Shown here in pieces: positions 1,615 to 48,800 of a stretch of DNA of 64,000 nt; the first letter of the stretch is position 1, and the number at the start of each line of letters is the position of its first letter. The position numbers and the translations under genes are program-made. The stretch covers positions 19,577-83,576 of IMG/VR virus record IMGVR_UViG_3300017917_004642; one strand, written 5' to 3'. The notes under the pieces were generated by a model. The model was not told the DNA's origin. It searched no databases and saw nothing but the letters and a program-made list of their open reading frames with translations. Source of the stretch: a virus.

Positions 1615-1635
1615 TAAACTAGATTAACTAACTAT

Positions 1636-1665
1636 AAAACCCCAAGCTTCGGCTTGGGGTTTTTT
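1636..1665 (+). terminator. Intrinsic terminator of the capsid gene (UUCG loop)
   Basis: The 8-bp stem CCCCAAGC / GCTTGGGG (1640-1647 and 1652-1659) closes on the very stable loop TTCG. It is flanked by AAAA upstream and a run of six T downstream (1660-1665). It lies 25 bases after the capsid stop codon. Confidence 0.93.
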
Positions 1666-1686
1666 GTGTTTATCATTTAATGGTAT

Positions 1687-1695
1687 GATATATAG
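1687..1695 (+). promoter_or_regulatory. Candidate late promoter box GATATATAG
   Basis: The box lies after the capsid terminator and 32 bases before the next start. Near-identical boxes precede several other transcription units in the window, each placed like a -10 element with a short leader. T4 late promoters use a similar single AT-rich -10 box; the assignment here is inferred from recurrence. Confidence 0.6.
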
Positions 1696-1727
1696 TCTAA
1701 AGTAAATCTTCGGATAGTATATAAGCT

Positions 1728-2849: not shown

Positions 2850-2850
2850 G

Positions 2851-3741
2851 ATGCTGTATAACTTTAAACGGTGGCAAAATGAAATTGCCTTAAACGAATC
2901 TAAATCCATGGATAGCATCATGAATTGGCTTAGCTCCAATTTTGGCGGTTCTGTGGCAAAGATAGATTCCCTACTCGGTAACATTCTTTCTATTGAAGAA
3001 GATTACATGAAAGAATGGAATGATATACAAACAGAAATAGACTCTTTGGAAGTTCAAAAAGCACAGATCAAAAGTGATCCGGCTGAAGCTAAAAAATTGG
3101 AAAGAATGATTTCCAGAAGCCACAAGCTTCTTGACGCATTATCCAAGAAAAGAAGAGCTAAGATTGATGACGTTGAGAAAAAGGTGGAAGCTGCTACAGA
3201 AGGCAAACAAAGACTGATCGCTTATTGGAACATGAAGAAATCTGAGGCTGAATCTGATGTTGCTGAAAAGTTGTATAAGATTGCTAAAAATCTTACCGAT
3301 TCTTCGATTGCTGATGAACTATACGACAAGTATAAAGATGCTGCATTAATGGCAAAAAAGAAAGATGAACAATTCAGATCTAAATTTGGTGAACTTAAAC
3401 TTTCTTCAGCAAGTACTTCACTCGACTCTGATGAAAAGCCATCTAAAACTAGTAGTTTTTCACTAGACCCTATCCTTGCAATGAATGCTGTTCAATTTAC
3501 CAAGTATGTTCAAGGATTAGAAAAAGGTGCGGTTAAAGAGCTAATCAAATTTATGATGACCGAAAGAAACGAAAGGTATGCAACCATTGACACAGAAAGG
3601 GATAGGCTTGAAGCTCAAGCTGATAAAAAAGGACTTTCTGCATCCGATGTTAAATCAAGTCTGAAAGATTTAAGAGAAACCCTGATGGAGCAGGTCAGAG
3701 ATTTAAGAACGAAAATAACCATCGCAAGAAGATATGCCTAA
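2851..3741 (+). CDS. Coiled-coil virion protein with prohead-protease-like site (probable head-internal protein)
   Basis: The 296-residue product has no recognised family. It is strongly helical and charged, with coiled-coil character around residues 50-120 and 225-290. The N-terminal segment NFKRW precedes L14-N15-E16-S17, the same aromatic-then-[I/L/V]-N-E arrangement seen in its neighbours. It starts 1 base after the upstream stop and its end overlaps the next start by 8 bases, so translation is probably coupled. A Ser-rich linker lies near residues 190-205 (SSASTSLDSDEKPSKTSS). I infer that it is packed in the prohead with its neighbours; a scaffold or accessory core role is possible. Confidence 0.58.
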   Translation: MLYNFKRWQNEIALNESKSMDSIMNWLSSNFGGSVAKIDSLLGNILSIEEDYMKEWNDIQTEIDSLEVQKAQIKSDPAEAKKLERMISRSHKLLDALSKKRRAKIDDVEKKVEAATEGKQRLIAYWNMKKSEAESDVAEKLYKIAKNLTDSSIADELYDKYKDAALMAKKKDEQFRSKFGELKLSSASTSLDSDEKPSKTSSFSLDPILAMNAVQFTKYVQGLEKGAVKELIKFMMTERNERYATIDTERDRLEAQADKKGLSASDVKSSLKDLRETLMEQVRDLRTKITIARRYA

Positions 3742-4018
3742 TCTAAGTCAATCACCTAAAATTGTTGGGCTTAAGGATTTCCAAATTAACGAGGGTGTTA
3801 ATGAGAATTTAATCACTGCAAAGAAACTTGTTAATGATAAACTTGCAGAGATTGCCGGTGAAATTGCTAACGAGAAAAAACAAATCACAACTCCCAATAA
3901 AATTGCTAGTATGAGAAAGCAGGCGACACTCTATAGTCAAATGCCAGCTCTTATTAACAAACTAGCAGATGCTATAGATGCTAAAGAAAAATCAGGAGAT
4001 AGAACAAACATTTATTAA
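3734..4018 (+). CDS. Small helical protein with N-terminal protease-like site
   Basis: The 94-residue product is not recognised. LKDFQ is followed by I18-N19-E20-G21 and a second V-N-E at 22-24, then a helical, Lys/Ala-rich body. Removal of the first 20 residues would leave a peptide of about 74 residues, similar in scale to T4 internal proteins. The gene overlaps its predecessor by 8 bases and ends 4 bases before the preferred start of the next gene, so it sits inside one operon. Confidence 0.6.
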   Translation: MPNLSQSPKIVGLKDFQINEGVNENLITAKKLVNDKLAEIAGEIANEKKQITTPNKIASMRKQATLYSQMPALINKLADAIDAKEKSGDRTNIY

Positions 4019-4022
4019 GACT

Positions 4023-6473
4023 ATGAAAAATTACTTTGGTAATAACCCAATTGCTAGACAGATAGCATTAGATACCTACAGATTAGATGAGAATGCTTCT
4101 GTTGATAGTTTATTAAAGAGAGCAACCGAGGTTACACTCGATACTTTTAAAAAGTTGATATTTGATCTTGCTGTAAAATCAAGTAGAAATCCGGATGCCC
4201 TCCGTCTTAAATTAACTGATGTTGGCTCTTCTAAGACTATCAAGAATCTTGTAGCCAAAATTAAAGATTATGCTAGTGAGGTTGAACTCTCTGATTCTAA
4301 ATATGCTGAAGTGAAACAGATGTATCTTAAAGCTTTGGATCAGATTTCTGATGCTCTAAAAAGACTTGTTGAGGTTGATCCAAAACTTGGAGATATGGCG
4401 ATTGATAATTTCCAAGAGCTTTCAACTAAACTTGTAAAGTCTTTGGAAGAAATAGCCACTTCATATTCTTCAAAAATGAACGATTCTGCTGACTTCGAAG
4501 GAACTCCGTTGAACGAATCTATTTTTACCGGATACAAAGGAAGAATCGAAAAGCTTAGAAAAAAGCTAGTAAATCTTATCTCTGATTCGAAAGGAAAGGA
4601 TACTAAATCAGGATATGGTAGAGATTGGCAGAGAATGTTTAGTGCATTGGATCAAAAGCTAGATGCAATTGATACAGCAAAAGATGTAGTTGGTGAGAAG
4701 GATAGAAAAAATCTTGCGGATCTAGAAAAGCAAACTGACAATCTAGCACAGGAGTATTACAATTACAAGATTAAAGCGACAGAGCAGGTTATGAAGAAAA
4801 TCGTTGATGACGATGAGCTTGTGACCAAATTTTCTGATGTGAATGATCTAATTACAACAGCTCTTGATATGATTGCTAAAGCCAATGTACAGGAAGCTAT
4901 CATCGAAACCAGAATTAGAGAAGATCTCGAGGAAGAAGAAGCTAAAATTAACGAGAAGGTATTTCCGATTAAAACTGGTTCTAAGGACACCGATCTTAAG
5001 TACAAAAAATCAGGCATCATTAAAGCAGTTCAGAAATCATTAATGGATGCATTCCCATCAATTGGCAGGTTGCTGTCAGAAAGAGGTGGGTCTGATGGTA
5101 TCTACGGGGATAGAACAACTGTGGCAATTAAAGCAATACAGGGTGCATTCGGCAACAAAAACGTTAACGGTGAATTGGACAAAGCCTTACTCGATACCAT
5201 TTTATCTTTAGATCAAGTTTCCTCTGATAATAAAAAATTGATTAACGAAAGTTTGGAGAAGCTGAAAAAAGCTTATGCAGTTTCAGAAAGTAATAGAGTA
5301 TTAAGTTCTCTTGAATTCTTAAAAATGAACGAGGCTTCTTTGTACATCAATGACGAGGATCTACAGAAGCAGATTGAAAAACACTCAGAGGATCTAGCAA
5401 ATTCACCAGTTACCAATTCTGCTCCCGGTAAAATTTCAACCTCCGATTCAGAATTGGCTAAAGATTTAGCAAAGGGCCTACGCAAAGAAGGATATAACAA
5501 GAATGCGGAGGAAGACAATTTCATTAGAGAGGATGGAACGTTTAAAGCTTCTTACCCTGTTGAGTATGTTCAGGCCTGGTATGACACTATAGTGGCAAAC
5601 GAGGGCAAAGATAAAAAGCCTTCTTTCTTCTGGCTTCAAAAAGAAGGAGATGATATTGGTGGACTTTACCCAACAAGAAGACTTTCTGGTAACATAAAGA
5701 AGCCATGCAACTGGCCAAAGTGGAGTGAATTGTCTAGTTCTGATTCTGATTCAGAAATTAATAGCTTTGCTAACTGGTACACTAGCATATATTCAAATTT
5801 TGGTGGTGCAACAGATTCAGCAAGATTGGATACTCTGAAAGATATTTTAACGTTTCATGCAGATTCGGAAAATGTCGACGAAGCTCCTGCTGGAATGAGT
5901 GACGAAGTATCAAGATTGGTTTCTTCCTATGATGAAGTTAGAGATTCCTTAAGATCCGAGAAATCAGAAGGGAAGGACAATGCCTACGAGTATTTTTCTA
6001 GGGGATACATTACTCCAGCAACGATGAAAATTATTGCAGAAGCTGCTAAAAAAGGTGCCCAAGTAGGAGACAAGGATCCAGATTTGGGTGAATATGATTT
6101 TATGCTAATTGCAAACCTAATTGCATTGGTAGCAACTTGTGTAACTTATGATAACAAAAATAAAAAGTTTTCTCCCGCTATAGATATTCTGTTAAGAGAT
6201 GCTCTTAATGAAGAAGTCATGTCAAGAATCATGAAGGATAAAAGCTTTAGCACAGGTAAGAAAAAACACAAGATGGCAAAGCTTGTTAGCGGAAGCGGAA
6301 TTATAGTTGGAGATAAGGAATACGATGCTAAAAAAGTTATGGAGAACAACATTAAGAGAGCAAAAGAGGTTCATAAAAAATTAATCGAGCAACATGCATC
6401 TAGAATGAATATGAAAAATATCGACGATGCTTCTGCTGCTGCCAGCGCTACCATTTACGTGGTGCCAGAATAA
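4023..6473 (+). CDS. Large helical virion protein with a peptidoglycan-binding-like segment
   Basis: The product has 816 residues from the ATG at 4023, chosen because it lies 4 bases past the previous stop; the in-frame ATG at 3978 would overlap that gene by 41 bases. The first half is charged and helical. Residues about 325-400 (AVQKSL ... GSDGIYGDRTTVAIKAIQ) resemble the PG_binding_1 helical repeat. The C-terminal third is helical and ends in an Ala-rich tail. Several [I/L]-N-E sites (around residues 163, 309 and 407) fit prohead-protease cutting. It could be a core or scaffold protein, or a packaged protein delivered at infection. No catalytic residues of a muralytic enzyme are visible. 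Confidence 0.5.
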   Translation: MKNYFGNNPIARQIALDTYRLDENASVDSLLKRATEVTLDTFKKLIFDLAVKSSRNPDALRLKLTDVGSSKTIKNLVAKIKDYASEVELSDSKYAEVKQMYLKALDQISDALKRLVEVDPKLGDMAIDNFQELSTKLVKSLEEIATSYSSKMNDSADFEGTPLNESIFTGYKGRIEKLRKKLVNLISDSKGKDTKSGYGRDWQRMFSALDQKLDAIDTAKDVVGEKDRKNLADLEKQTDNLAQEYYNYKIKATEQVMKKIVDDDELVTKFSDVNDLITTALDMIAKANVQEAIIETRIREDLEEEEAKINEKVFPIKTGSKDTDLKYKKSGIIKAVQKSLMDAFPSIGRLLSERGGSDGIYGDRTTVAIKAIQGAFGNKNVNGELDKALLDTILSLDQVSSDNKKLINESLEKLKKAYAVSESNRVLSSLEFLKMNEASLYINDEDLQKQIEKHSEDLANSPVTNSAPGKISTSDSELAKDLAKGLRKEGYNKNAEEDNFIREDGTFKASYPVEYVQAWYDTIVANEGKDKKPSFFWLQKEGDDIGGLYPTRRLSGNIKKPCNWPKWSELSSSDSDSEINSFANWYTSIYSNFGGATDSARLDTLKDILTFHADSENVDEAPAGMSDEVSRLVSSYDEVRDSLRSEKSEGKDNAYEYFSRGYITPATMKIIAEAAKKGAQVGDKDPDLGEYDFMLIANLIALVATCVTYDNKNKKFSPAIDILLRDALNEEVMSRIMKDKSFSTGKKKHKMAKLVSGSGIIVGDKEYDAKKVMENNIKRAKEVHKKLIEQHASRMNMKNIDDASAAASATIYVVPE

Positions 6474-34981: not shown

Positions 34982-36601
34982 ATGGCAGAACAAATTCAAA
35001 TATTTCAAACTCAGGCAGTAAATTTTACTGATACGTCAAGTGGTGGGCAACCGCCTTTAAGCAGATTGTGGTCTTTCCAGGGAGGATCAATTTCTTCCGC
35101 CACCGGAGCAACAGCCACTGTTTATTATTCGAACCCGGGATTATACAATGTGAGTCTTACTGTTACTGATAGCTTAGATACTAGCAAGATTCTCACAAAA
35201 ACAAACCTGGTAAACGTATCTCCTGCTTACGTAACTTCAGATTTTACCGGAACACCAACGTCAAGTGTTTTAATGAGCACTCCGATAAATTTTGTCGATG
35301 TCTCTACTGGACAGCCACAGGCACCAGATACTTGGTCTTGGAATATAGCTGGTGTTACCTCTACATCGCAGAACTTTTCGTTTAGTGGTTTTAACGACTG
35401 GTTTTCAATTGGTGGTGTTTCTGGTGATTCACCAGGACATGTTATTTCTGTCAATGCTCAGCTTACTGCATCAAGAGGTGGACTTTCAGATGTTAATGTT
35501 AAAAGCTTTCCTGTAACTAAAATTGGACCAGCAGAGACTAATTGGATTAATTCTGGTGGATCGACAGGAGCTTGGGTAATAGATTCATCATTCTCGTTCG
35601 AGATGAATGGTTTGGTACCACTAAATACATCAGACATTTCGTATCCTGGTACTGATATTATCTATAATCTTGGACTGTCTGGGGGTTCACAGAATATCGA
35701 TAAGTTCCATACAACCACTGAAGATGCTACTCTTACATACACGGGCGGTATATTACCTTCAAATACCGGGATTTGCGAATCGCCAGGCTATATTATCATC
35801 GAGGATTCTCTATATGCAAGCGGATTTCCGTCTATAGAATATGGTCAATTTATTTCACCCGCATTGGTTAATAACCTGTACTTTACTTCACAACAATTGG
35901 ATTCAGCCTACAATGGTAACTATATTGTCGGATATAGCTATTCTCAAGCATTAATCGAGGATTGTGTTAACTCTAGATACCCACAAACCAATTCTGGTCA
36001 AGCTCCATCTCTAAACAAAGTGTTTCCGTTTAACGAAGCATTTGGAACTGATGAATATCCGGTAGTACCTTCACAAACATATTATTACCAAACTTCTGGT
36101 ACTACTGGAACATATCAAATAATAATCGATGTTGATTTTTTTGGCGGAACCGCTGCTAGCGCAACAGTAAACTTCACTGCTAACTCTGGTCTTGGAAACG
36201 AACCCGGAGGTGGCTTACAAGGTTTTTATTATGTGATGCAGGACATTGGGCCAAATCTTGGTGTTGCAACACAAATCAATAATGCAATTGCTTCATCTAG
36301 CATTCCTGGAGGAACTTCTTCGATTGAAGCTTACGCAAGCCCGATTTATAATACAAAAACAGGAGGATTAACTGGCGATTATTACGGGTTGTCTTTGCAG
36401 TTTAAAAACGTAAACATACAAACCGTTACAATCACTGACAATTCAGATTTATTGAATCCTTTAGCATTAACATTTCCTTTTTCACTTTCAAATTCAAACC
36501 CAGCACCTGCAACATGTACTGGAATAATCGGTACCATGGATTTGAGCTCATATACACCGGGATTTGGAACACGATTAGATTATGGAGGTTCAATCTACTA
36601 A
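34982..36601 (+). CDS. PKD-domain tail/baseplate protein
   Basis: The 539-residue protein starts with a PKD (Ig-like) domain, residues about 12-78: VNFTDTSSGGQPPLSRLWSF, then Y-Y-S-N-P-G-L-Y-N-V-S-L-T-V-T-D. A second, more diverged one follows at about 95-135 (INFVDVSTG ... TWSWNI). The rest is beta-rich and Gly/Ser/Thr-rich with no recognised enzyme motif. PKD domains on phage tails usually serve as spacers or weak glycan-binding modules. It lies 13 bases after the gp7-like gene and 13 before the propeller protein. Confidence 0.7.
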   Translation: MAEQIQIFQTQAVNFTDTSSGGQPPLSRLWSFQGGSISSATGATATVYYSNPGLYNVSLTVTDSLDTSKILTKTNLVNVSPAYVTSDFTGTPTSSVLMSTPINFVDVSTGQPQAPDTWSWNIAGVTSTSQNFSFSGFNDWFSIGGVSGDSPGHVISVNAQLTASRGGLSDVNVKSFPVTKIGPAETNWINSGGSTGAWVIDSSFSFEMNGLVPLNTSDISYPGTDIIYNLGLSGGSQNIDKFHTTTEDATLTYTGGILPSNTGICESPGYIIIEDSLYASGFPSIEYGQFISPALVNNLYFTSQQLDSAYNGNYIVGYSYSQALIEDCVNSRYPQTNSGQAPSLNKVFPFNEAFGTDEYPVVPSQTYYYQTSGTTGTYQIIIDVDFFGGTAASATVNFTANSGLGNEPGGGLQGFYYVMQDIGPNLGVATQINNAIASSSIPGGTSSIEAYASPIYNTKTGGLTGDYYGLSLQFKNVNIQTVTITDNSDLLNPLALTFPFSLSNSNPAPATCTGIIGTMDLSSYTPGFGTRLDYGGSIY

Positions 36602-36614
36602 GATAAATACATAA

Positions 36615-39600
36615 ATGGCAAACTCGTTACTTTACATAAATCAAGGTGCACTAGATTCGTCAGAAAACGTTTGGTGTGTCGGAAGAGACCTTACTGTTTA
36701 CGATGGTCAATCTTGGACATACTTCAATTACCTCAATTCGATAGTACCAAACAATAGCCCTTATTTTTTGGATACCAGATCAATCTCGATTGATTCTGAT
36801 GATACAAAGTGGATTGGTTGTGCTGTATCAAGTGGTTTGTCACAGGATCTAATCTTTTATGCAGAAGGACCTCAAGCTGCAACAGGTTCATCCTGGACTA
36901 TTAACGATTTTAATCTTTCTGGTGCAAACTGGGAGGTTCCAACAATTTATGCTAGTCCTTATGGAGACGAGATTCTTGCTTTCATTTCGCCACTAAACGG
37001 AGGTGGAGGAACAGGAGCTACTGGAAACGTGGGTGTCACCGGGGGTTATCTTTGGTCATACAATAAGATAAGTTCAGAGTGGAAAGAAGTATCTCCTGGT
37101 TATGTTTGGCCACACATTTATGAAATCAAGGCCAAGGGAAAGGATGGAATAAATTGGGATTACTATCTAGCTACTACAGATGGTGTACAGATAATTCCAA
37201 ATGGAATTCTTGATACCTCAGTTTTGCAGGACGGAAGTAAATTTATACCAAATCTCAAAAAAATAAACGGGTACAATTCAAGTCTGAATTCCAATACAGT
37301 TTATTCCATAAGCTTTGACGAGAATGGTCACTATTGGCTGGGAACTGAAGCTGGTCTAACTTATTGGGATGGATCCAAATATTATAATTGGGTAACACCG
37401 GGTTCTGAATCTGTTCAATCTGTTGTTGCAAGGCCTAACGGTCACGTTTTTTTCAGCGAAGGAAATCCGTTTGAAACACCGTCAGGAACAAATGGTTTCT
37501 ATCATTTCAATGGTGATACATTTACTAATTACAATACCTCAAATTCCACACTGCCGGACGATTTAGTTATCTCTATTCTATTAGTCCCTGAAAAGACTTC
37601 CAAAGGATCGCTAACGCTCTATCCCAACGATCTTTGGATAGTTGCTGGAAATTATGTAGTTCTTTTTGATTATGTCATACCACACGTCTATGGATCTTCC
37701 AAGTATGAAGGTACGACAGGCTGGAATTTTATTGACTACACACCAAATGCAACAGGTGCAACAACGGATGCAGCGAATCTACCAAAAACTGAAAGGTTCA
37801 ACTGGGTTTATCCTTCTTGGCAGGGATATGAAAATTTTGAGCTTTCTAACAATCATCCTGGTATGGACCCAAGAAATCTATTTCTTGATACCGATTTCAA
37901 AGCTATTGCTGATGGGAGAGCGGGAAATCAAGATTACTGGAACTGGGGACAAGTCATTCCTTACGAACAACAGGTAGAAGCTGGGTTGATCCCTGATTAC
38001 ACCTGGATTAACGGAATAACAGGGGCAAGTCAGATTACGATATCTTCTGTTTCTAGATACAAGAATTTAAATGTTCTATCTGGATACAGTAACAACCCGT
38101 ACACAAACTTTGGCCCATCTAGTAACACAGAGAATGAATTCATAGTTGCCAATCCTAATCCTACAAACGGCACATCAGGAACACAGAATTTTGGATTTGT
38201 AACATTCTATAGCGACGGAGGGCAGGTACAGGGGACTATTCCTTTTAGAGGCTATAACACTAGGGTTTTAAGTGCAAAACCATCATATGACAATTCTTCA
38301 CTCGTAGTTTTGGGTTCTTATTCAGGATATGTTGAAGGCGGTAAGTTTGTGTGGGGATCTGAGTATCCTACTGCTGCCAATATGACAGTAACTGGAACAA
38401 CAGGTCCAATTGGTGGACCAATTGGATTTTCTAATATTGCTACTCCTGGAATTACCGCAAGTTTTGATTACCCATGGATATTAAACGGAGCGACAGGAGC
38501 GACCTCTGGTGTCTATATCCCACAGCCTTCGGTCTTAACTTCTACTATTGGGTATTTCCTAGCAGAAGTTGATTTTGAAATTGGCGACGAAACAAGTTAT
38601 GGCGGGATAGATTTTTCAACAGAAACAACATCTTCCAAATTTTGTCTTAAGAATTTTAGAACCTTCCCTGGCGCAAACTCAAGTTATGACCCAGCAATAC
38701 ACCCTGCAGGAACATTACCAACGCAGATTGGAAATTCGGATCTGTCTATAAGTCAAAATTCAATTAGATTTACTGGTAATATAACCGGTGGAATATCAAC
38801 ACTAAAAAATGATTATGAAAATACAAACGACCTACCAAACTCTCCTGAATTTATTTTCTCATCCTTTAGCAATTCCTCTTATGTTTCAAGTGGATTCGTT
38901 ATTGATGTTAGCCCTGATTTTTTCTTAAAGAATGGATCTTCTGTTGGTATGACCGGTAACGGCTCATTAGATACCATCGCATCACTTCCAAACGGTCAAA
39001 CTTTTTTACTAACCGGAACTTCAACAGATAACTTAAGCTACGAAAATCTCAATGTTCCACATTCATCAGGCGGAGCCATGTATCCCTGGTTTGTTCTATC
39101 TGATGAAAACAACCGGGGTATCACTGGTTCATTCTTTAAAAATAGCTCAAGCGGTGATGCAAACTACCAGTCGTGGAACAATACAGTAACATCCTTTTCT
39201 AGCACTAGCAATTTCTATAGTGCGATGATTTACACAGGAAACGGATCCATTGAAAGCTATAATGGATCTTCTCTGACTGTTGGAGGTGCATCTGGAGCAG
39301 TAAATTCTGCAATCGTCTCTATTACACCAGGTGGAAAAGTAAGTCTAGCATCAAGCTACGAAATACTACCTTCTGATTACGAGTTTGCGTATAATGCAAC
39401 AATAAGTTCTGTACAAGGTGTTAGAGCAAATGATTCATACTATTTAGCAGTAAATTATCAACACAATCCTGGTGTTACTGGAAACGGAAATATCATAATT
39501 AAAAGATCAGTGAGTGGAACTCACGTTGATGATTTCTCAACCTTCCCTATTGATCCAAACAGTGGTACACAAAGTCCATTAAAATTAAGTGTTGATGCAG

Positions 39601-40259
39601 ATCTAAATGTATTCGTTGCTGGTGGAAATTCTGGAATAACCGGTCCTACAGGTCTTCCTTACCCTGCTGGAAATCTTTCCTTTGTTTCACTGCTTGAAAG
39701 TTTTAAACCACCAGTTGGTGTTGATATGGGTGATATCATATCTAGAGCGGGATCTGGTGCATGGACTTGGGTAGATGTTCATAATTCAGATTCAGATCTG
39801 AATGTACCTATGCTCTCGACAGTTTTCTTTAGCAACTACAATTCACAAATTTTTGGTAAAAATTCAAATCGATGGGTGTTAACCGATGCAAGATTGGGTG
39901 AAGTAATACTGGATGTCAAACAAATCCCATATTTCATATACACGTTTGTTAAGTCCGGATACTACTCAATACAGAACACAGTGGAAGATGCTGCAGGCAA
40001 CGTTTACGAGATTGCTAAACCAGCTTTCATAAAAGTTGTCAATCAATCAATTGCAAGAGCAGATGACCCAAATCCATTCTTGGTAAATTCAGCAGATTAC
40101 GGGTATGTACAAGAAAAAAGAGGATTTGAAAACGAAGCTGAAAAACTGGACAAAGACATGCTTGAGCAGCAGATTGAGATTAGACTTAAAAACATTCCTC
40201 CTTTTGGATCTGGATTAATTATCAAAGACGATCCAGATGCGACATTTAGAGGCGATTAA
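36615..40259 (+). CDS. Large propeller-type tail protein
   Basis: In this 1214-residue protein the first 380 or so residues contain repeated blades of the two-component-regulator propeller kind (SFDENGHYWLGTEAGLTYWD, and similar WVCVGRDL / TKWIG units), suggesting a beta propeller that binds a surface ligand. A short collagen-like Gly stretch lies near residue 135. The centre is a long chain of Gly/Ser/Thr-rich beta segments. The last 130 residues form a compact end with a charged tail (LDKDMLEQQIEIRLKNIPP) that could anchor it to the baseplate. It overlaps the reverse-strand phoH fragment by 4 bases. Confidence 0.6.
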   Translation: MANSLLYINQGALDSSENVWCVGRDLTVYDGQSWTYFNYLNSIVPNNSPYFLDTRSISIDSDDTKWIGCAVSSGLSQDLIFYAEGPQAATGSSWTINDFNLSGANWEVPTIYASPYGDEILAFISPLNGGGGTGATGNVGVTGGYLWSYNKISSEWKEVSPGYVWPHIYEIKAKGKDGINWDYYLATTDGVQIIPNGILDTSVLQDGSKFIPNLKKINGYNSSLNSNTVYSISFDENGHYWLGTEAGLTYWDGSKYYNWVTPGSESVQSVVARPNGHVFFSEGNPFETPSGTNGFYHFNGDTFTNYNTSNSTLPDDLVISILLVPEKTSKGSLTLYPNDLWIVAGNYVVLFDYVIPHVYGSSKYEGTTGWNFIDYTPNATGATTDAANLPKTERFNWVYPSWQGYENFELSNNHPGMDPRNLFLDTDFKAIADGRAGNQDYWNWGQVIPYEQQVEAGLIPDYTWINGITGASQITISSVSRYKNLNVLSGYSNNPYTNFGPSSNTENEFIVANPNPTNGTSGTQNFGFVTFYSDGGQVQGTIPFRGYNTRVLSAKPSYDNSSLVVLGSYSGYVEGGKFVWGSEYPTAANMTVTGTTGPIGGPIGFSNIATPGITASFDYPWILNGATGATSGVYIPQPSVLTSTIGYFLAEVDFEIGDETSYGGIDFSTETTSSKFCLKNFRTFPGANSSYDPAIHPAGTLPTQIGNSDLSISQNSIRFTGNITGGISTLKNDYENTNDLPNSPEFIFSSFSNSSYVSSGFVIDVSPDFFLKNGSSVGMTGNGSLDTIASLPNGQTFLLTGTSTDNLSYENLNVPHSSGGAMYPWFVLSDENNRGITGSFFKNSSSGDANYQSWNNTVTSFSSTSNFYSAMIYTGNGSIESYNGSSLTVGGASGAVNSAIVSITPGGKVSLASSYEILPSDYEFAYNATISSVQGVRANDSYYLAVNYQHNPGVTGNGNIIIKRSVSGTHVDDFSTFPIDPNSGTQSPLKLSVDADLNVFVAGGNSGITGPTGLPYPAGNLSFVSLLESFKPPVGVDMGDIISRAGSGAWTWVDVHNSDSDLNVPMLSTVFFSNYNSQIFGKNSNRWVLTDARLGEVILDVKQIPYFIYTFVKSGYYSIQNTVEDAAGNVYEIAKPAFIKVVNQSIARADDPNPFLVNSADYGYVQEKRGFENEAEKLDKDMLEQQIEIRLKNIPPFGSGLIIKDDPDATFRGD

Positions 40260-40681
40260 TTTTTTGGTTTAGCATTTCCAGTACCGCCCTGTGCTTTACT
40301 GTGCTTCCATTCCTCATATCTTTTTACGATTTCTTTCAGAATTTTAGATCTGACGATATCTTCTTCACCGAATTGAAATTCTCCAATGTTTTTAACCCCT
40401 CTTACAAGTTCCATAAAGAAAGGTAAAGCAACCTTCTCATAAGAAATGTCGTGCTGGGTTACATCTCCCGCAATCACCATCTTTGAATTTTTACCCAACC
40501 GAGAAGTGTAAAGCATTAACTGTTTCATATCACAATTCTGAGATTCGTCAAGAATCATAATGCAATTTTTACTTAATAGACCATGTGTGGCAAAGTAATT
40601 GTGATTATCTTTTACGTTTACGGAAAAGAATGGTACATTTTCATACTCACTCTCAATCCTAGTTATTTTTTTTACTCTCAT
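40256..40681 (-). CDS. phoH: PhoH C-terminal half fused to split-intein C-fragment
   Basis: In this 141-residue product residues 1-39 are an intein C-fragment: MRVKKITRIESEYENVPFFS then V-N-V-K-D-N-H-N-Y-F (block F) and H-G-L-L-S-K-N (block G). Residue 40 is the +1 extein Cys. Residues 40-141 are the PhoH C-half, opening with CIMILDESQN (Walker B; PhoH consensus is close to FVILDEAQN) and SKMVIAGDVTQHD. Its start overlaps the endonuclease stop as ATGA. Joined to the N-half, it would give an uninterrupted PhoH of about 235 residues. PhoH is a P-loop ATPase common in phages; its role in infection is not settled. The residue before the terminal Asn is Lys rather than the usual His. Confidence 0.85.
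   Translation of the reverse strand: MRVKKITRIESEYENVPFFSVNVKDNHNYFATHGLLSKNCIMILDESQNCDMKQLMLYTSRLGKNSKMVIAGDVTQHDISYEKVALPFFMELVRGVKNIGEFQFGEEDIVRSKILKEIVKRYEEWKHSKAQGGTGNAKPKN
40565..40681 (-). other. Split intein C-fragment (IntC), 39 residues
   Basis: This stretch covers the start codon to the Asn before the extein Cys (codon 40564-40562). The length and the opening pattern (Lys-rich, then I-x-x-I-E) match known phage split-intein C-fragments of 35-40 residues. Block F is VPFFSVNVKDNHNYF and block G ends L-L-S-K-N. Confidence 0.83.
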
Positions 40682-41925
40682 TTATATAAATTATAATTTG
40701 TTAGATCCAGACTATCATCGACCAAACCAAAAAACCACCCGTCTATTTCTTCTTTTGTCTCGAAGCATTTATCTTTATATTTTCTGTGTGGCAAAGGTTT
40801 GAAATTTGATAATTTTTCTTTGCAGAATTTTTTAAAGTTACCCGCAGTAACCCATTTTTCACCATTTGGGAAATGTATGATTATCTTTTTTGACATCGGA
40901 TTCTTATCACCCGATATTTTCTCGCCGTTTTTATAATTTGGGTTATTTATTCCCATCCGGTATTTTGCCATCCATTCATTAAATTCTTTTTCTCCTAATT
41001 GAACACGGTTTTTATGAAATGATGAATTATCCCCCCTTCTTACATCTTCCATATATTTTTCTCTTTCTTCCGGAGGTAAAGAATTTAATTTTTTTGAAAA
41101 TGGATTATTTACAGAAGAACTGTTATTGAATATCCATTCTTTTTTTTCCTCTTCATTTAATCCTGATAAAAATTTGTAATATGCTGAATTATCACCTGTC
41201 CTATCCGTTTTTTTAAAACAGCTTATACACATTGAAGATTTATTACCTTTTCTTCCTGAACAAATTTTGCATATCGTTTTCCCTTTCCAATGTGGACTAT
41301 TTTCTTTTAATATATATTTGGATTTCCATAATTCCAATTCTTCTTCACTTTTATTTCTAAAATGATTAGATTTTTTAACCGATATTGAAAATTGTAATCT
41401 GAATGAATCGTCACATTCCGCCCAGAATTTTTTTAATCCATTTGATATTTTAGTCTTTATTTCCTCTATTTCATTTTCTTTCTTATTTTCGAAAATGTTT
41501 TTCCCATACATTGGGTTCCTTTCGCCACTTAAGATTGGGTTCCTAACCCCTGGGATTGTTAAATTGCAAAGACTTCCTTCCCCTATTTCATCAGATATCT
41601 TTGTTCTAGTACCAATCTGTTCGCAAACCTTATATTCTATTTCAAGAGCTTTATCCTCCGTTAATCCATCTTTTATTTTTATAATGAATTTATCCTTGAA
41701 ATCGTTTACGGTTACATCCGATAAAATTTTACTTATTATTCTATTTTTCAGCGGGTTATTTTTTATAGGTTTAAGATGATCGTATAATCTATTACCTTTA
41801 CCCTTACCGACATAAAATGGCTGAAATTCCAGTGTAAATCTATCACCATCAATAATTAATTCCCTAGATTCTGGTTTTCTAGGATCTAAATATACGTAAG
41901 TGTAAAATGAATTATCACATTTCAT
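40678..41925 (-). CDS. Free-standing GIY-YIG homing endonuclease with NUMOD3-like repeats
   Basis: The 415-residue protein opens with the GIY-YIG nuclease domain: Y8-T-Y-V-Y12 (GIY strand), F37-Y-V-G-K-G-K-G-N-R46 (YIG strand and catalytic Arg) and Y48-D-H50. Short DNA-binding units of the NUMOD3 type follow several times (GERNPMYGK, SPHWKGK, INNPNYKNG, GDKNPMSKK). A C-x2-C-x10-C-x2-C zinc knuckle lies at 41218-41271. Its start overlaps the phoH-N/intein gene by 11 bases and its stop overlaps the intein-C gene by 4, so the three form one coupled operon. The likely role is to cut phoH alleles lacking the insertion and so spread the whole block. Confidence 0.88.
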   Translation of the reverse strand: MKCDNSFYTYVYLDPRKPESRELIIDGDRFTLEFQPFYVGKGKGNRLYDHLKPIKNNPLKNRIISKILSDVTVNDFKDKFIIKIKDGLTEDKALEIEYKVCEQIGTRTKISDEIGEGSLCNLTIPGVRNPILSGERNPMYGKNIFENKKENEIEEIKTKISNGLKKFWAECDDSFRLQFSISVKKSNHFRNKSEEELELWKSKYILKENSPHWKGKTICKICSGRKGNKSSMCISCFKKTDRTGDNSAYYKFLSGLNEEEKKEWIFNNSSSVNNPFSKKLNSLPPEEREKYMEDVRRGDNSSFHKNRVQLGEKEFNEWMAKYRMGINNPNYKNGEKISGDKNPMSKKIIIHFPNGEKWVTAGNFKKFCKEKLSNFKPLPHRKYKDKCFETKEEIDGWFFGLVDDSLDLTNYNLYK

Positions 41926-42217
41926 AGTATATTATATCATCTTCTTCCGTAAGATCTTTTGCCTCTACAATACCCCTATTTGATGTGTAAAATTTATGAG
42001 AATCTGTTACGTTTATGCTTGAACCATTTTCCAATTCTACACAAATGTATTTATTTGTTAGTGACATTGAAATTGCATCTAATTCTTTTTCTTCTAATTC
42101 CCCTTTCGGGTTTGAAGTTATAACAATATGATATATCCCATTTGAAGCATCCTCAAAAATTTGGTCCACCGTAATGTAACCTTTGTTCGTAAGTATTTTT
42201 TCACCCGAAATTAAACA
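41915..42217 (-). other. Split intein N-fragment (IntN), 100 residues
   Basis: It runs from Cys1 (codon 42217-42215) to the stop. It contains block A (CLISGEK...) and block B (TDSH), followed by I-V-E-A-K-D-L. The extein residue before Cys1 is Glu. Confidence 0.85.
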
Positions 42218-42616
42218 TTCATCAAACGTTGCACCTCTCATATATGCCAATGGTCTAAATTCGATTACTTTATCGTTTATTAATTGGGTTAGAACATCTT
42301 TCTTTATGATCTTTTCCATAGTGATCAAAAAGCTTTCCATGTAGGGTCCAATCTTTTCTCCAACGTCTCCTGGTAAACTTCCAAGTTTTTCCCCCGATTC
42401 CTGGATTGGCTTGGTAAAGATTATTTTTTCGATGACTCCTTTTTGTAAAAGTCTAAGAGCTGTATAGCAGGCAGAAAATGTTTTAGAAGATCCAGCAGGT
42501 CCCCAACAAAAGGTAATCGTATTGTTGAAGATTGTTTCTGAATACTCTTTTTGTTTTGGTGATAATGAAATGTCTAAAAATGAGCTTGCGGTTAACTTGT
42601 TTTTTCCTACTGGCAT
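41915..42616 (-). CDS. phoH: PhoH N-terminal half fused to split-intein N-fragment
   Basis: In this 233-residue product residues 1-133 are the PhoH N-half, with a P-loop G39-P-A-G-S-S-K-T46 (the usual Gly before Lys is Ser), IIFTKPIQESGEKLGSLPGD and the junction YMRGATFDE. Residue 134 is intein Cys1 (CLISGEKILTNKGYITVDQI), block A. Block B follows near residue 205 as V-T-D-S-H-K-F-Y-T with the T-x-x-H pair. The intein part is 100 residues, typical for a split N-fragment, and ends without an endonuclease domain. The break lies just ahead of Walker B, a favoured intein site. Splicing in trans with the product ending at 40681 would restore PhoH. Confidence 0.87.
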   Translation of the reverse strand: MPVGKNKLTASSFLDISLSPKQKEYSETIFNNTITFCWGPAGSSKTFSACYTALRLLQKGVIEKIIFTKPIQESGEKLGSLPGDVGEKIGPYMESFLITMEKIIKKDVLTQLINDKVIEFRPLAYMRGATFDECLISGEKILTNKGYITVDQIFEDASNGIYHIVITSNPKGELEEKELDAISMSLTNKYICVELENGSSINVTDSHKFYTSNRGIVEAKDLTEEDDIIYYEM

Positions 42617-42639
42617 ATTTGAGTGTTTGTTAATAGTGT

Positions 42640-42648
42640 GATATATAT
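42640..42648 (+). promoter_or_regulatory. Candidate late promoter box GATATATAT, divergent region
   Basis: The box lies 33 bases before the start at 42682. The reverse strand of the same site reads AATATATAT, 24 bases ahead of the phoH start, so the site could serve both directions. The leader also holds a small hairpin TTTCTA-AACT-TAGAAA at 42648-42663. Confidence 0.5.
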
Positions 42649-42681
42649 TTCTAAACTTAGAAACTAAAAAATTGACCTCAA

Positions 42682-43566
42682 ATGGCTACAGTAAGCACTA
42701 CTTCAATTCTAGGATCTGATTCAATTTCTGGATCTAGACCCACAATTAATTCTAATTTTCAGATTTTAGAAAACTGGATTAATCAATACAATAATGTATT
42801 TGGCATTGATTCAACGAATGGTATTTTGGACCTTTCTGCTGCTTCAACTGGAAGAGTATCAGCTAGAACCGGAAGATTTGACCAAATCATCGTTCCGAGC
42901 GGAGGAACAGCACTTGCCCAGATTCTTTCAACAGGTTCTGCTTCTTTCGTTAGTACAGCAACAACGACTTTAACAGCAAGCGGGGCATCAACTTTAAATG
43001 GTGTTTTCACTTCAAACAATAGCTCGACATTTAACTCGACGACTAATCTTTTTGGCGCAACCAACCTTAATAGCTCATTCACAATCTCTTCTGCTGGTCA
43101 CTTTGTTGGACAAAATACAACTTATGCAACTGGTGCAACTGCTGGAACTGCCTTCCCTGCTAACACCCTTGGTGGTGGCGGTAGAGCTTCTTCTCTAGCT
43201 GTACCTTACCAAATCACTGGTTTAGAGGATATCATCTATGCTCAGTGTGGTGGCGGATTTTATATGACAGTTGGAACTACCGGTGCTACTGCTTCTAATT
43301 TGGCTGCAGGTACAAGAATTACCATTATCAATACTGGAGGAACAGGCGGATTTATAGCTACTGGAATTCAAAACGGTGGAGCATATTACACTGGATTTAA
43401 TACCCAAGCATCTTATGGTAATTTCCCATCCACTGGAATAACATGTGATAATTTAAGACCTTACCAATCAGCTTTACAGCTTCAATGGGAACCAAGAGTA
43501 GGAAAAGGAACCGGCACACAAGAGGGATCTTGGGTAGTTTTGGGTTCTTCAAAAATGACTTGGTAA
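42682..43566 (+). CDS. Tail fibre-like protein
   Basis: The 294-residue protein is rich in Ser, Thr, Gly and Asn with repetitive beta pattern (residues about 75-150), as in trimeric fibres. The N-terminus (RPTINSNFQILENWINQ) resembles the attachment segments of the two collagen-like fibres further on (KINSNFDSLIQNG). The C-terminal part (LQLQWEPRVGKGTGTQEGSW) looks like a small folded head domain. It opens a unit behind a GATATATAT box. No enzymatic motif is visible. Confidence 0.6.
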   Translation: MATVSTTSILGSDSISGSRPTINSNFQILENWINQYNNVFGIDSTNGILDLSAASTGRVSARTGRFDQIIVPSGGTALAQILSTGSASFVSTATTTLTASGASTLNGVFTSNNSSTFNSTTNLFGATNLNSSFTISSAGHFVGQNTTYATGATAGTAFPANTLGGGGRASSLAVPYQITGLEDIIYAQCGGGFYMTVGTTGATASNLAAGTRITIINTGGTGGFIATGIQNGGAYYTGFNTQASYGNFPSTGITCDNLRPYQSALQLQWEPRVGKGTGTQEGSWVVLGSSKMTW

Positions 43567-43582
43567 TAATAAAATTTTCTAA

Positions 43583-45796
43583 ATGGCAAAAACCCCGTTT
43601 ATACGTCCTTTACAGGTTCAAGGTGGTACATTCTACGCCTTTTCTTCTGCTGCAGAAGACTTATCTTTTACTTTCAATAATTCTGTAAATAAATTTAAGT
43701 TTTCTAAATTTGCTTTGCTTAACATCCCAGAAATAAATTCTGGTGATCCCTTGGGTAATAGCTTGAAGTTGAACGCTCCCGACAGTGCATTCATAGACAA
43801 AGCTACAAATGCTCAGAATATAATTACCAATAACGCAAACGTTAATTTTTCTCAAAGTTTCCAAAGTTATTGCCTTAACCTAGAAACAACAATCTTAAGC
43901 GGTTCTGATTACGATTCAAGTCTAAAACAGAATATCTCAGAGAGAGTATTTTGGAAATGGCTTAAAGAACTTGGTGGAATGAGATATCAACCAGCTTCTT
44001 CGGATCAGGTTGTTTCTACACTGGACCAGAACACTGTTTTAACCATTAACAATATACCAGTTACACAAAAAAGATATGTCGAAGGTGATCCTGCAGGCGG
44101 AACTGGATCCTATGGTTTAACTGGAGCAACCTACAATAGAGTTGTTCAGTACATTGGAAACCTTGACATTGTAAATTCTGTAAAAAACAACAGTAACACA
44201 TATTCTGAAGTTTATGTTTTAGTTCCAACCAAAGACGGTAACACGCCAACTGTTCTTTTTAAGAATGTAACGGATCAGAACTACCTATTGGATTATGGCT
44301 GGACTAATAATCCGGCGGATCCTTTGAATGACGAATATTTAACAGGACGTGCATATGATGAGTTGAACCCTAGCGGATTAACAAATTTAGCAATATTCGA
44401 TGACGATGTAATCGGACAACCCACCGTTACTTTTACCGAAACATCAAACGGAGCAACAGGATCTGGTAACTGGTATTCTCCAAGAGCAATAGCAGATACA
44501 TATTTTAGCGATCAGCTGTTTACCGATCCTACAGCACAAATCCTTAGCAAATCATATGCCGGTGCTACTTCAGGAAATGGTTTTCAACAGTATGTTAGAA
44601 CAAAATTAGATTCTATCGGAATTGATTTTGACCCAAATTCATACAAACAGATCGTCGATGACCCTACAATTTCTACTCTAGAAGAATTCAACGCAACATC
44701 GCTTTCTGGTGATTTCCAGTTTAATGCAGTTCTTATCTATTATGATGTGTACGATCCAGCAATCCCTGCAGATTCTGCTACTAATTTATATGGGGTTCTT
44801 TTTCTAGATGATGTACAAGATACTGGGACAGGAACTTTTAAAATTCCAACGTTTACCAAATACAAGCCAAATCCAGTTACCAAACTAAACGGAAATTCAT
44901 ACGGATTAAAGCTTAATATCAAATTTGATGTAGACATCGATCAAACTGGAGTAGAACAAGCGATTAACGACTACTCACCTTTTTCTTTGACCATGTTTAT
45001 GGATGCTGTAAATGTTTTGCAAGACGCATCATCTACATTAAATAACACAGCATCAATTTATGCAGGTCTTGAAGATAGAGTAAGTTCTTTGGAAAATTTG
45101 GTTCTTTCGTCAGAAACAACTTTTAATATTGACAGAAGAATAGCTAATCTGGAGAATGCACTTGCAGCAAATCAAGCACTTTTCAACAACACTCAGGCTG
45201 TTATGGGATTGATCAACCAGAACTATGAATTGATCAGAGCTATTATCAACAATGAAACATCTGTTGAAATATCTTACAACCTGAATTTGATTAAGCAGGG
45301 ACAGGGTGTGATAGTTGACAGAAGCGTACCAAATCAGCTTACAATTTCCAACGATACTCAGGATTATCACATAGGAGAAAGAAATGGAACAATCACTTTA
45401 CAGAACGTTTCACCCAACGTTGTGGTTCTTGAAACATTTGGTAACTATGTAAAACACATCAACAACGGAACTCCAATCGCTCTTTCTTCTGATCTAGTTA
45501 TAAGAATCGACGACTCAACTAGAACTAACTGGAGACAGGGTCAGGTAATGAGATTCTCTTTTGGCGATCAAATAATTCCCGGTGATTACAATGTTACTTT
45601 CCTAACTAACTCGGTTGGAAAATTCCCATTAGGTGATCCAACAAATGTCCCATACTCAACATTAATCATATCTCTTACCAACACTGAGTTTGCTTTGTAC
45701 GATTATAAGCCAGTGATAGATATTGTTTGTATTGATCCAGTTAACCTTATTTTCCAGGTTGATCAAGTCGGAAAAAGTTTAACCAATAACGAGTAA
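43583..45796 (+). CDS. Uncharacterised tail/baseplate structural protein
   Basis: The 737-residue product is not recognised. It has a beta-rich N-terminal two thirds with aromatic clusters (FWKWLKELGGMRYQP near residue 125), then a helical or coiled-coil segment near residues 480-560 (RVSSLENLVLSSETTFNIDR) that could trimerise the chain. A C-terminal beta domain follows. It starts after a short A-rich leader with Ala as second residue. By position it belongs to the distal tail or fibre set. Confidence 0.55.
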   Translation: MAKTPFIRPLQVQGGTFYAFSSAAEDLSFTFNNSVNKFKFSKFALLNIPEINSGDPLGNSLKLNAPDSAFIDKATNAQNIITNNANVNFSQSFQSYCLNLETTILSGSDYDSSLKQNISERVFWKWLKELGGMRYQPASSDQVVSTLDQNTVLTINNIPVTQKRYVEGDPAGGTGSYGLTGATYNRVVQYIGNLDIVNSVKNNSNTYSEVYVLVPTKDGNTPTVLFKNVTDQNYLLDYGWTNNPADPLNDEYLTGRAYDELNPSGLTNLAIFDDDVIGQPTVTFTETSNGATGSGNWYSPRAIADTYFSDQLFTDPTAQILSKSYAGATSGNGFQQYVRTKLDSIGIDFDPNSYKQIVDDPTISTLEEFNATSLSGDFQFNAVLIYYDVYDPAIPADSATNLYGVLFLDDVQDTGTGTFKIPTFTKYKPNPVTKLNGNSYGLKLNIKFDVDIDQTGVEQAINDYSPFSLTMFMDAVNVLQDASSTLNNTASIYAGLEDRVSSLENLVLSSETTFNIDRRIANLENALAANQALFNNTQAVMGLINQNYELIRAIINNETSVEISYNLNLIKQGQGVIVDRSVPNQLTISNDTQDYHIGERNGTITLQNVSPNVVVLETFGNYVKHINNGTPIALSSDLVIRIDDSTRTNWRQGQVMRFSFGDQIIPGDYNVTFLTNSVGKFPLGDPTNVPYSTLIISLTNTEFALYDYKPVIDIVCIDPVNLIFQVDQVGKSLTNNE

Positions 45797-45811
45797 AATT
45801 TTAAATAGAAA

Positions 45812-48800
45812 ATGTCAGGCACCCAAAATTCTATAAGTTCTCTAGTAGCTCAGTTTCTGAGACTTCAGAAAAACTCTATTGAGATTATCAATGGTTTAAA
45901 CGAAGTTGCAACTTCTACTAACGAGACGGTTCAAATTGAAATGCTAGATGAAGCAGGCTTACCTACTAATGCTAGCATACCAGCGTATGGTTACTTAAGA
46001 AGCCAGATACAAAGACTTGATTCAAACATTCAAGCATTGTCTGGACTTGGCGATAATTTTTCCACTGTTAGAAATCCAGATGGAACTTATTCACAGATTT
46101 ATAAATCTCAACCTTTAAGAGATCCAACTCCCCTTGTTAATTTACAGGTACCTAGCACATTCTCAACACGTGACAATTGGTTTTTTGAAAGCTTTTTGTC
46201 TCCGCTTCTTTATATTAATATCGATGTTACGGGTCAAATACCCGATGATGCTGACCGGATTCAGGTAAAAAGAATCATAGCAAACACAGATACCGATGTT
46301 AAGAAATCTTATTTCGATCAGAATCTTGATGGCAGAAACGATATCAGTGAGCAAGAATTTATCAATGAGCTTGTTAATAATGGGATTACATATTTTGTAG
46401 ACGAGGACACAATTCCATTGCCTTTAAGAACAATTAGAAACAAGGGAACTTTTAGCGTTATCTCTTTTTATGACGATACTGTAAGCACGACAGATGCAAA
46501 CGGACAGGTTGTTCAAGAAACAAGAAGAAACTACAAACTTAATAACATCCAGTACACTGATACGACAACTGGTGTAGAAAACGGAAGAACACTTCAGGTT
46601 GGGAATTTCCTACTAACTACAGATGGATCTAGATATGAGATTACGTCAATCAATATAGCAGAAACATCAGTGCAGCTGAAGAGAACTTCTGGTTATCAGC
46701 CAGTTCAAATTGGTGCTGATACTTTAAGCCTACTTTCAACCCAATTCAGTCAGAGATTCGTACAAGTAAATGTCGGATATGACGAAAGACAGGGAGTTTT
46801 CTTTAAGAAAATAGACGATAACTATAACATAGTAGCTTCAACTTGGTCTCCTGGTATAGTTTTCTTCTCAAATCAATTAAGAATAAACACGTCTGGTGGG
46901 GTACAAACTCTAGAGCAATTTTATTTAACGTCAGTAGCGGATTTAGGCCAGATCTTTCTTGGTATGGCCAAAGAAAAGAAGATCAATGCAATTAGCGGAT
47001 TGGTCCCAGATTCTCCAACTATTACTGCGGATAATTTCAGAGTAGTACAAATAAATACTCAGCTTACACAAGGTACTGATGTTCAAACACTTAACGAAAA
47101 GATTGCACTAAAATCCACTTTACAAAGTGAAATCCTACAACTTGATACTGCAATCAACACGGCAAGATCTCAGATTAATAACGTAAGTACTGTTTCTGTT
47201 TTGCCGCAGTCTGGTGTTTTACAGCCTTTAGCTATTTCAGCAAGCAACTCGCTTACATCAACAACACAAAACACACAAGCTCTTCAAGCAAACTTAAATT
47301 CTTTAACCCAGCAGAGAGTACAAAAGCAGCAGCTTTTGGCTTCTGTTGTTAGCGATATCTCAACACTTTCTACCAACACCCCGCAACTTGTTGCCGAGCC
47401 TAAATATAGAGTTAGAGGATTCTGGCCTATTCCACAGCCAAAGCAAAGCCCATCTACTGGACCACAATCTGTTATCCAGTTCATCATTGAGTACAGGTAT
47501 TTAAGTGATTCTGGTGTAGCACCATCAGTGCAACAGATCCAATTCCTGGATTTAAATGGACAGAAGAAAACAGGAGCTTTCAGCAACTGGACTAAAGTTG
47601 TTACCGACATCAGAAAAAAAGTATATGATCCGAACACAGGAACATATGTTTGGTCACCAGAATTTACTGATGATGCTGATGCTAACAATATAAATCAATT
47701 GGACATCCCAATCACTAAAGGTGAAAAAGTAGAAATTAGAATTCAGTCAGTTTCAGAAGCTGGCTGGCCAGATAATCCATTAACATCGGATTATAGCGAT
47801 TCTGTAACAGTTTCTTTCCCTGCAGATGCCACAACACAGAATGCTGCTGCATCTCTTGTTAATAATATGAAAGATGAGGCTGTGCTTGCAATTCAACAGG
47901 ATTTGAGTGCTAAGGGTGTAGACGGTCTTTTGTCAAAACAGTTTACTAACGGTTCAAAAACATATTACTTGGATGCTCCGAGTGTAGCAAGCGGATTCTA
48001 CGATTCTTCTGGAACCCCAGTAGATTTATTTCAAAAATTAACAGAGCTTCAGGATCAATTGAACTCTTTGAGAGCAACAGTAGAAAAAGCAGTTGGTATA
48101 CTACAGGTTTACATTGTAGACAGCAACGGAAGTTCACAAATAGTTACTAGCGGACAGACAATTAAATTGAACGCTGGCTATTACAATCAGATCTTTACCA
48201 ACCCAACAACATCAGATGCCGGAAAAATTGCAGCAAAAATTTATCAGCTTAAACTTGTAAATAGCGCTGCTGGACTTCTCGAATTGGCTTCTTCTTTGCC
48301 AGGAGGTTTAGATACCCTTGCCGGTACTTCTAGCACATATTCTCTCCCTGCTGGATATGCTACCAATCTAAGATACGGAGAAATATCCATTTCAGTGACT
48401 TCTTTGACACCTGCGGATATTATTCCTCCTGGTTCTACTGGTAATGCAAACGATGAATCTTTCCAGCAACTAAGACAAGCAGCACCGTACGTATCTGGTA
48501 ATGCAAATAGCCAATTCATTTACCCAAGATGGAAATCAGTTGGCCTAGATCAGAATCTTTACTTCACCCCAACTTCTTATGTCTCTGGATACGATTACAC
48601 AGGAAATCCTAGTGGATACCCGCAGAACGGTAGCTCACTGATTCCATACGATCCAACAATTTCTACCGTTCCTACAGCATCTGGTACAAATGGTTCTGTT
48701 TGGAATGGAGGATACACAGGTACAACTGGTTCTTATATTGGATTGGGTAACGGATATCTAAGTGAATTCTGTATTCATAAAGACCATCCTGCTTTGTCAA

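What the first reader, a model, noticed from the sequence alone, without database searches (positions are those of the whole stretch)
40256..42616. Fractured phoH: a split intein with a free-standing GIY-YIG endonuclease between the gene halves
Three reverse-strand genes lie in order: PhoH N-half plus intein N-fragment (42616 to 41915), GIY-YIG endonuclease (41925 to 40678), intein C-fragment plus PhoH C-half (40681 to 40256). The junction YMRGATFDE + CIMILDESQN rebuilds the PhoH motif around Walker B exactly, giving a protein of about 235 residues. Intein blocks A, B, F and G are visible, and fragment lengths (100 and 39 residues) match known split inteins. Overlaps of 11 and 4 bases show three separate, coupled genes rather than one broken intein. 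'Fractured genes' of this layout are known for other phage enzymes; I know of none in phoH and none with a GIY-YIG/NUMOD3 nuclease, but I could not search.
Basis: partly seen in the sequence, partly recalled or inferred. Interest (0 to 1): 0.93.

Follow-up and report, generated by a model that had tools for sequence, protein, structure and literature searches.

The report
Phage phoH split by intein and nuclease
In this uncultured phage the gene phoH is cut into two genes by a mobile element whose two intein halves should rejoin the protein after translation, with a DNA-cutting enzyme encoded between them; this kind of arrangement is known, but not found before in phoH.

Summary
Three minus-strand genes encode PhoH-N + IntN (100 aa), a GIY-YIG nuclease (415 aa) and IntC (39 aa) + PhoH-C. 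A syntenic relative has an uninterrupted phoH, and its alignment breaks exactly at the predicted splice junctions, so a 1653-bp element was inserted precisely. All class 1 splicing residues except the penultimate His are present, and the five canonical GIY-YIG catalytic residues are intact. The insert is AT-richer than its flanks. The first ~31 codons after it match a different phoH lineage from the rest of the gene, as expected of co-conversion during homing. This is a 'fractured gene': a trans-splicing split intein plus a homing endonuclease. A split intein with a GIY-YIG nuclease between the halves is published (AceL NrdHF), and I found more in nrdA of Klebsiella phage KP13-7 and of two uncultured phages. 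Inteins in PhoH are also known (Campylobacter phage IBB_35, mycobacteria), but the IBB_35 one is unsplit and at another site; the mycobacterial sites were not compared. A split intein in phoH at this site was not found elsewhere by motif scans. New member of a known kind; splicing and homing are inferred, not shown.

The parts
42218..42616 (-). PhoH N-extein, 133 codons, Walker A GPAGSSKT
   Evidence: Pfam PhoH profile 6-123, 111 bits; 90% aa identity to the uninterrupted PhoH of L003
41918..42217 (-). Intein N-fragment, 100 aa: Cys1, block B TDSH; stop at 41917-41915
   Evidence: NCBIfam TIGR01445 37.7 bits, cutoff 24.5; PDB NrdJ-1 intein E 2.4e-6 with both fragments joined in the query
40678..41925 (-). 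Free-standing GIY-YIG endonuclease, 415 aa, overlapping gene 1 by 11 nt and gene 3 by 4 nt
   Evidence: PF22945 LEM-3_GIY-YIG at its cutoff (25.1 of 27 bits; 27.2); all 33 aligned relatives match PF22945; profile to PDB 9u75 GIY-YIG protein E 5e-10
41563..41907 (-). GIY-YIG catalytic domain, residues 7-121; Y10, Y38, R46, E97, N121 invariant in 33 relatives
   Evidence: alignment A3; AlphaFold pLDDT 88-97 over residues 11-100
41218..41271 (-). Cys4 zinc-finger-like motif of the nuclease (C219, C222, C233, C236)
   Evidence: sequence; structure there unresolved, pLDDT below 50
40951..41193 (-). Three tandem ~27-aa repeats in the nuclease (residues 245-325), probable DNA-binding array
   Evidence: self-similarity 57 at offset 54, and 32 at offset 27; best of 500 shuffles 43; helical in the model
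40565..40681 (-). Intein C-fragment, 39 aa, ending SKN with Cys+1
   Evidence: TIGR01443 14.0 bits (cutoff 15.6); alignment with 9 other IntC, invariant N, H, N, F, A, N, C
40256..40564 (-). PhoH C-extein, 102 codons plus stop, Walker B MILDES
   Evidence: Pfam PhoH profile 119-205, 72 bits; 80% aa identity to L083
40472..40564 (-). Putative co-conversion tract, codons 134-164 of spliced PhoH, L010-like instead of L003-like
   Evidence: informative residues inside 8 L010: 1 L003, outside 3: 53; Fisher p 2.8e-7, permutation p 1e-4
40565..42217 (-). Whole inserted element, 1653 bp, GC 29-31% against 36% in the exteins
   Evidence: blastn against L003 breaks at 42218 and 40561; GC

Best explanation
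A mobile split-intein element has inserted precisely into phoH between codons 133 and 134 of this phage. Gene 1 makes the PhoH N-half with IntN. Gene 3 makes IntC with the PhoH C-half. The fragments associate and trans-splice: Cys1 N-S shift, transfer to Cys+1, Asn cyclisation. This gives a 235-residue PhoH with Walker A and B restored. The separately translated GIY-YIG nuclease between them cuts intein-free phoH alleles in co-infecting phages, and repair from the interrupted allele copies in the whole 1.65-kb element plus some flank. Shown: precise insertion, complete gene set, conserved catalytic residues, synteny with an empty allele, a mosaic tract next to the insert, foreign base composition. 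Inferred: trans-splicing, nuclease specificity, homing.
For: (three ORFs, PhoH halves, IntN). (empty allele L003 syntenic over about 9.4 kb, 77-81% nt identity, break exactly at the splice junctions). (uninterrupted 235-aa PhoH in L003, the length predicted for the spliced product). (+1 is C/S/T in 32 of 39 distinct empty alleles). (nearest solved intein is the split intein NrdJ-1). (nuclease family and catalytic residues). (same layout with GIY-YIG nucleases in nrdA of other phages). (co-conversion-like tract). (AT-rich insert, separate reading frames).
Against: No splicing or cleavage data. IntC scores just below its family cutoff and lacks the penultimate His (SKN^C), as do several of the other phage IntC. 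No second copy at this site was found, so maintenance by selection cannot be measured. L003 is only 70-96% identical in protein by region, so the mosaic tract could reflect other recombination. The Foldseek search against PDB found no GIY-YIG match; the model's pTM is 0.42.
Confidence: 0.88

Rival explanations
1. One ordinary cis-splicing intein with an embedded GIY-YIG domain, broken by assembly or sequencing errors.
For: Metagenome contig; only one copy at this site was found.
Against: Two indels would be needed, each within a few bp (14 and 4) of short overlaps that put an ATG right at the boundary. Natural fractured genes have just this layout and these fragment lengths (PMC7891396). The IntC ORF begins MRVKKI like the start-codon-initiated IntC of PM2 and L104.
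Confidence: 0.04
2. Gene in pieces without splicing: the two PhoH halves assemble non-covalently and the intein remnants are passengers, as reported for nrdA split by a homing endonuclease in Aeromonas phage Aeh1 (own knowledge; the paper is cited in PMC10448857).
For: No splicing data; penultimate His absent.
Against: All other splice-junction residues (Cys1, TxxH, block F His, Asn, Cys+1) are intact, and so are both complete fragments. Remnants would be expected to decay.
Confidence: 0.05
3. Dead element: the intein no longer splices and phoH is a pseudogene, tolerable because phage phoH may be dispensable.
For: AT-rich, apparently recent insertion; no purifying-selection test is possible with one copy.
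Against: No disrupting stop or frameshift within any of the three genes over 2.36 kb; residues of PhoH, intein and nuclease active sites intact.
Confidence: 0.03

Closest known systems
AceL NrdHF split intein (Ace Lake metagenome, PMC7891396)
   Same: Fractured phage-like gene; split intein (98 + 48 aa) with a GIY-YIG nuclease gene between the halves; trans-splicing shown experimentally
   Different: Class 3 intein (no Cys1), in an RNR beta subunit; here class 1, in phoH
Fractured genes of Dassa et al. 2009 (gp41-1, NrdJ-1 and others; own knowledge, not held in the library; the paper is cited in PMC6892783)
   Same: Three-gene layout with class 1 split inteins; NrdJ-1 is the nearest solved structure (E 2.4e-6)
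   Different: The nuclease family described there is, as I recall, Vsr-like (EDxHD), not GIY-YIG; host gene differs
nrdA of Klebsiella phage KP13-7 (L112) and of L282, L288 (IMG/VR)
   Same: IntN / GIY-YIG nuclease / IntC between two halves of an enzyme gene; the L282 and L288 nucleases are homologous to this one
   Different: nrdA host gene; intein only distantly similar; the KP13-7 and L288 nrdA genes carry a second split intein
PhoH intein of Campylobacter phage vB_CcoM-IBB_35 (PMC3322345)
   Same: Class 1 intein in a phage PhoH, about 29% identical, also ending LSKN^C
   Different: Cis mini-intein without nuclease, inserted at Walker B (VDE^CQN), about 7 codons downstream, in a PIN-PhoH fusion protein
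UvsW split inteins of Salmonella phage S16 and Proteus phage PM2 (L110, L111)
   Same: Highest identity of the inteins compared (37% over 128 columns); inserted after DE^C; nuclease between the halves
   Different: TnsA/Vsr-like nuclease instead of GIY-YIG; the intein tree has no strong support for a specific sister

Membership tests
Split intein (class 1) | N-terminal splicing block with Cys/Ser1 and block B TxxH | tested here: met
   TIGR01445 37.7 bits, cutoff 24.5; Cys1; TDSH
Split intein (class 1) | C-terminal blocks F and G ending in Asn, with Cys/Ser/Thr at +1 | tested here: met
   N^C present; block F His present; TIGR01443 14.0 of 15.6 bits; aligns with 9 other IntC. Penultimate His absent
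[quoted passage not shown]
   ORFs and PhoH profile halves
Split intein (class 1) | Trans-splicing activity | not testable with these tools
   needs co-expression
Fractured gene (split intein with nuclease between the halves) | Endonuclease gene between the intein halves and precise insertion against an intact allele | tested here: met
   L003 synteny break at 42218/40561; GIY-YIG gene
GIY-YIG homing endonuclease (LEM-3-type) | GIY-YIG catalytic Tyr, Tyr, Arg, Glu, Asn | tested here: met
   Y10, Y38, R46, E97, N121 invariant among 33 relatives; PF22945 at its cutoff
   12.6 bits, cutoff 20.4; 20 of 33 relatives match
GIY-YIG homing endonuclease (LEM-3-type) | Cleaves the intein-free allele | not testable with these tools
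   indirect only: co-conversion-like tract
PhoH | Walker A and B with full PhoH profile coverage when joined | tested here: met
   Profile 6-123 plus 119-205; 235 aa, like the intact L003 protein

The most novel reading that the evidence does not exclude
The element records a recent jump of a DE^C-type split intein, otherwise seen at Walker B of phage helicases, into a second-best D-E^C-like site 7 codons upstream of Walker B in phoH. It was mobilised by a GIY-YIG nuclease with an undescribed 27-residue repeat DNA-binding array that replaced the usual Vsr/TnsA-like nuclease. The flanking tract would be its footprint.
Probability: 0.2. Interest if true: 0.6.

Novelty: new member of a known kind. 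Interest (0 to 1): 0.42.

Why it matters
It adds phoH, one of the commonest phage marker genes, to the hosts of natural split inteins. It gives a new candidate pair (100 + 39 aa) for protein ligation. It also supplies a rare case where an empty allele, the inserted allele and an apparent co-conversion tract can be compared, so homing of a fractured gene becomes testable.

Tried and rejected
Exact-peptide search with the whole nuclease found no viral relative; a two-sequence alignment did. A first pattern for inteins at this PhoH site was too loose and returned only ordinary PhoH. Two tighter patterns (C-end and N-end of the insert), which hit the window once each with none expected by chance, found no intein in IMG/VR (both patterns) or GTDB contigs (C-end pattern). 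Foldseek of the nuclease model against PDB gave nothing (multi-domain model, pTM 0.42), so the family call rests on sequence profiles. The intein tree did not resolve the parent. Rfam found no RNA element, so a group I intron is not supported; no terminator-like site was found between the genes. The phage has no near relative in GenBank phages for window 10000-34000. Dassa et al. 2009 is not held and was not read.

Full report
The observation. Three minus-strand ORFs are present at the stated coordinates: 42616-41915 (233 aa), 41925-40678 (415 aa) and 40681-40256 (141 aa), overlapping by 11 and 4 nt. Pfam PhoH matches gene 1 over profile positions 6-123 and gene 3 over 119-205, so the two halves make one full domain. 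Gene 1 residues 134-211 pass the NCBIfam intein_Nterm cutoff. The first 39 residues of gene 3 are an intein C-fragment, slightly under its cutoff but aligning with nine other phage IntC fragments with invariant N-H-N, F-A and N-C. Joined, the two fragments find NrdJ-1, a split intein, as the nearest solved intein (E 2.4e-6).

It is a precise insertion. The closest relative, L003 (IMGVR 3300021429_003499), has an uninterrupted 235-aa PhoH, exactly the length predicted for the spliced product. DNA on both sides is syntenic: 81% identity over window 42218-47616 and 77% over 36562-40561, and the alignment breaks at 42218 and 40561. The predicted intein coding span is 42217-40565. So 1653 bp were inserted at the splice junctions. 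The insert is 29-31% GC against 36% in the exteins and 37% for the window.

It is not one broken gene. In the nuclease frame there is a stop at 41934-41932; in the IntC frame a stop lies directly before the ATG at 40681. An error that fused the three frames would need one indel within about 14 bp and another within about 4 bp. The same order of genes is found independently elsewhere: uvsW of Salmonella phage S16 and Proteus phage PM2, uvsW or other helicase genes in several IMG/VR contigs, and nrdA in Klebsiella phage KP13-7, L282 and L288.

The nuclease. It belongs to the LEM-3-like GIY-YIG group. The window protein sits at the Pfam cutoff (25.1 of 27 bits; 27.2), all 33 aligned sequences match the family, and a profile of them finds GIY-YIG proteins and UvrC in the PDB (E 5e-10 for 9u75). 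Y10, Y38, R46, E97 and N121, the five positions expected of the GIY-YIG active site (own knowledge), are invariant. The C-terminal part carries a Cys4 motif (inconclusive: low model confidence) and three ~27-residue tandem repeats, above all 500 shuffles. NUMOD3 is not significant in this protein, though common in relatives. Foldseek gave no match, so the family call rests on sequence.

Evidence for homing. Residues of spliced PhoH were scored where L003 and L010 (a more distant, uninterrupted phoH with FDD^C at the site) differ. Outside codons 134-166 the window agrees with L003 at 53 of 56 informative residues; inside, it agrees with L010 at 8 of 9 (Fisher p 2.8e-7; permutation p 1e-4 for residues and 4e-4 for nucleotides). 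A tract of about 90 bp directly 3' of the insert thus has another ancestry, as expected if a double-strand break in the recipient was repaired from an L010-like donor that carried the element. Unrelated recombination cannot be excluded. The +1 residue is C, S or T in 32 of 39 distinct empty alleles; the -1 residue in the window is E, seen in none of them.

The insertion site. It lies 4-6 residues before the Walker B motif (FDE^CIMILDESQN), not within it. The related UvsW/helicase inteins and the PhoH intein of phage IBB_35 sit directly after the Walker B D-E. That the present site also reads D-E^C suggests, without proving, a jump to a similar flank.

What is known. Fractured genes with split inteins were defined in 2009 (Dassa et al., own knowledge; the paper is cited in PMC6892783, but not held). 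A GIY-YIG nuclease between split-intein halves is published for AceL NrdHF, with trans-splicing shown (PMC7891396). Inteins in PhoH are published for Campylobacter phage IBB_35 (PMC3322345) and mycobacteria (PMC6195587); the IBB_35 intein is a single cis mini-intein at another site. The mycobacterial insertion sites were not compared. A split intein in phoH was not found in the papers I could search. Motif scans for either end of an intein at this PhoH site found none in 2.9 million viral contigs, and the C-end scan none in the GTDB species genomes. These scans are motif-limited and metagenomes were not available.

Mechanism. Most likely, the two precursors associate through the intein fragments and trans-splice to the intact 235-residue PhoH, while the separately translated nuclease spreads the element to empty phoH alleles. 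The anatomy and the insertion are shown; splicing and cleavage are inferred. This is a new member of a known kind with a new host gene.

Noticed in passing
L112 (Klebsiella phage KP13-7, OP617745.1), 885-6162: nrdA is in several pieces: one split intein with a GIY-YIG nuclease (3233-3946) between its halves, then a second split intein with an unidentified ORF (4906-5877) between its halves. Most pieces are annotated only as hypothetical proteins.
   Followed up: partly
L110 2173-4899 and L111 2173-4905 (Salmonella phage S16, Proteus phage PM2): uvsW is a fractured gene: helicase N-half + IntN, a TnsA-like nuclease gene with a sub-cutoff NUMOD3 hit, IntC + UvsW C-half; annotated as two helicases and a hypothetical protein.
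   Followed up: partly
L288 2368-6792; L282 2386-5913: nrdA fractured by a split intein with a nuclease homologous to the window's; in L288 a second split intein follows, with no nuclease between its halves.
   Followed up: partly
L275 5292-7977 and L310 1622-3891 (minus strand): Further fractured genes with split-intein ends: a topoisomerase II-like gene and a RecA/UvsX-like gene, each with an unidentified ORF between the halves.
   Followed up: no
window 40951-41193, minus strand: Three tandem repeats of about 27 residues (DNSAYYK..LNEEEKKEW type) in the nuclease, possibly an undescribed DNA-binding repeat.
   Followed up: partly
L259 15971-17890 (Campylobacter phage IBB_35): The PhoH precursor shows one class 1 mini-intein at VDE^CQN; the paper's wording could be read as two inteins in this gene.
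   Followed up: yes
L113 1516-3699 (Bacillus phage Mater): The nearest GenBank phage relative of the window nuclease lies two genes downstream of an intact phoH; it may be chance.
   Followed up: no
L102 3920-5888: uvsW split by a split intein with no nuclease gene between the halves, perhaps a later stage after nuclease loss.
   Followed up: no
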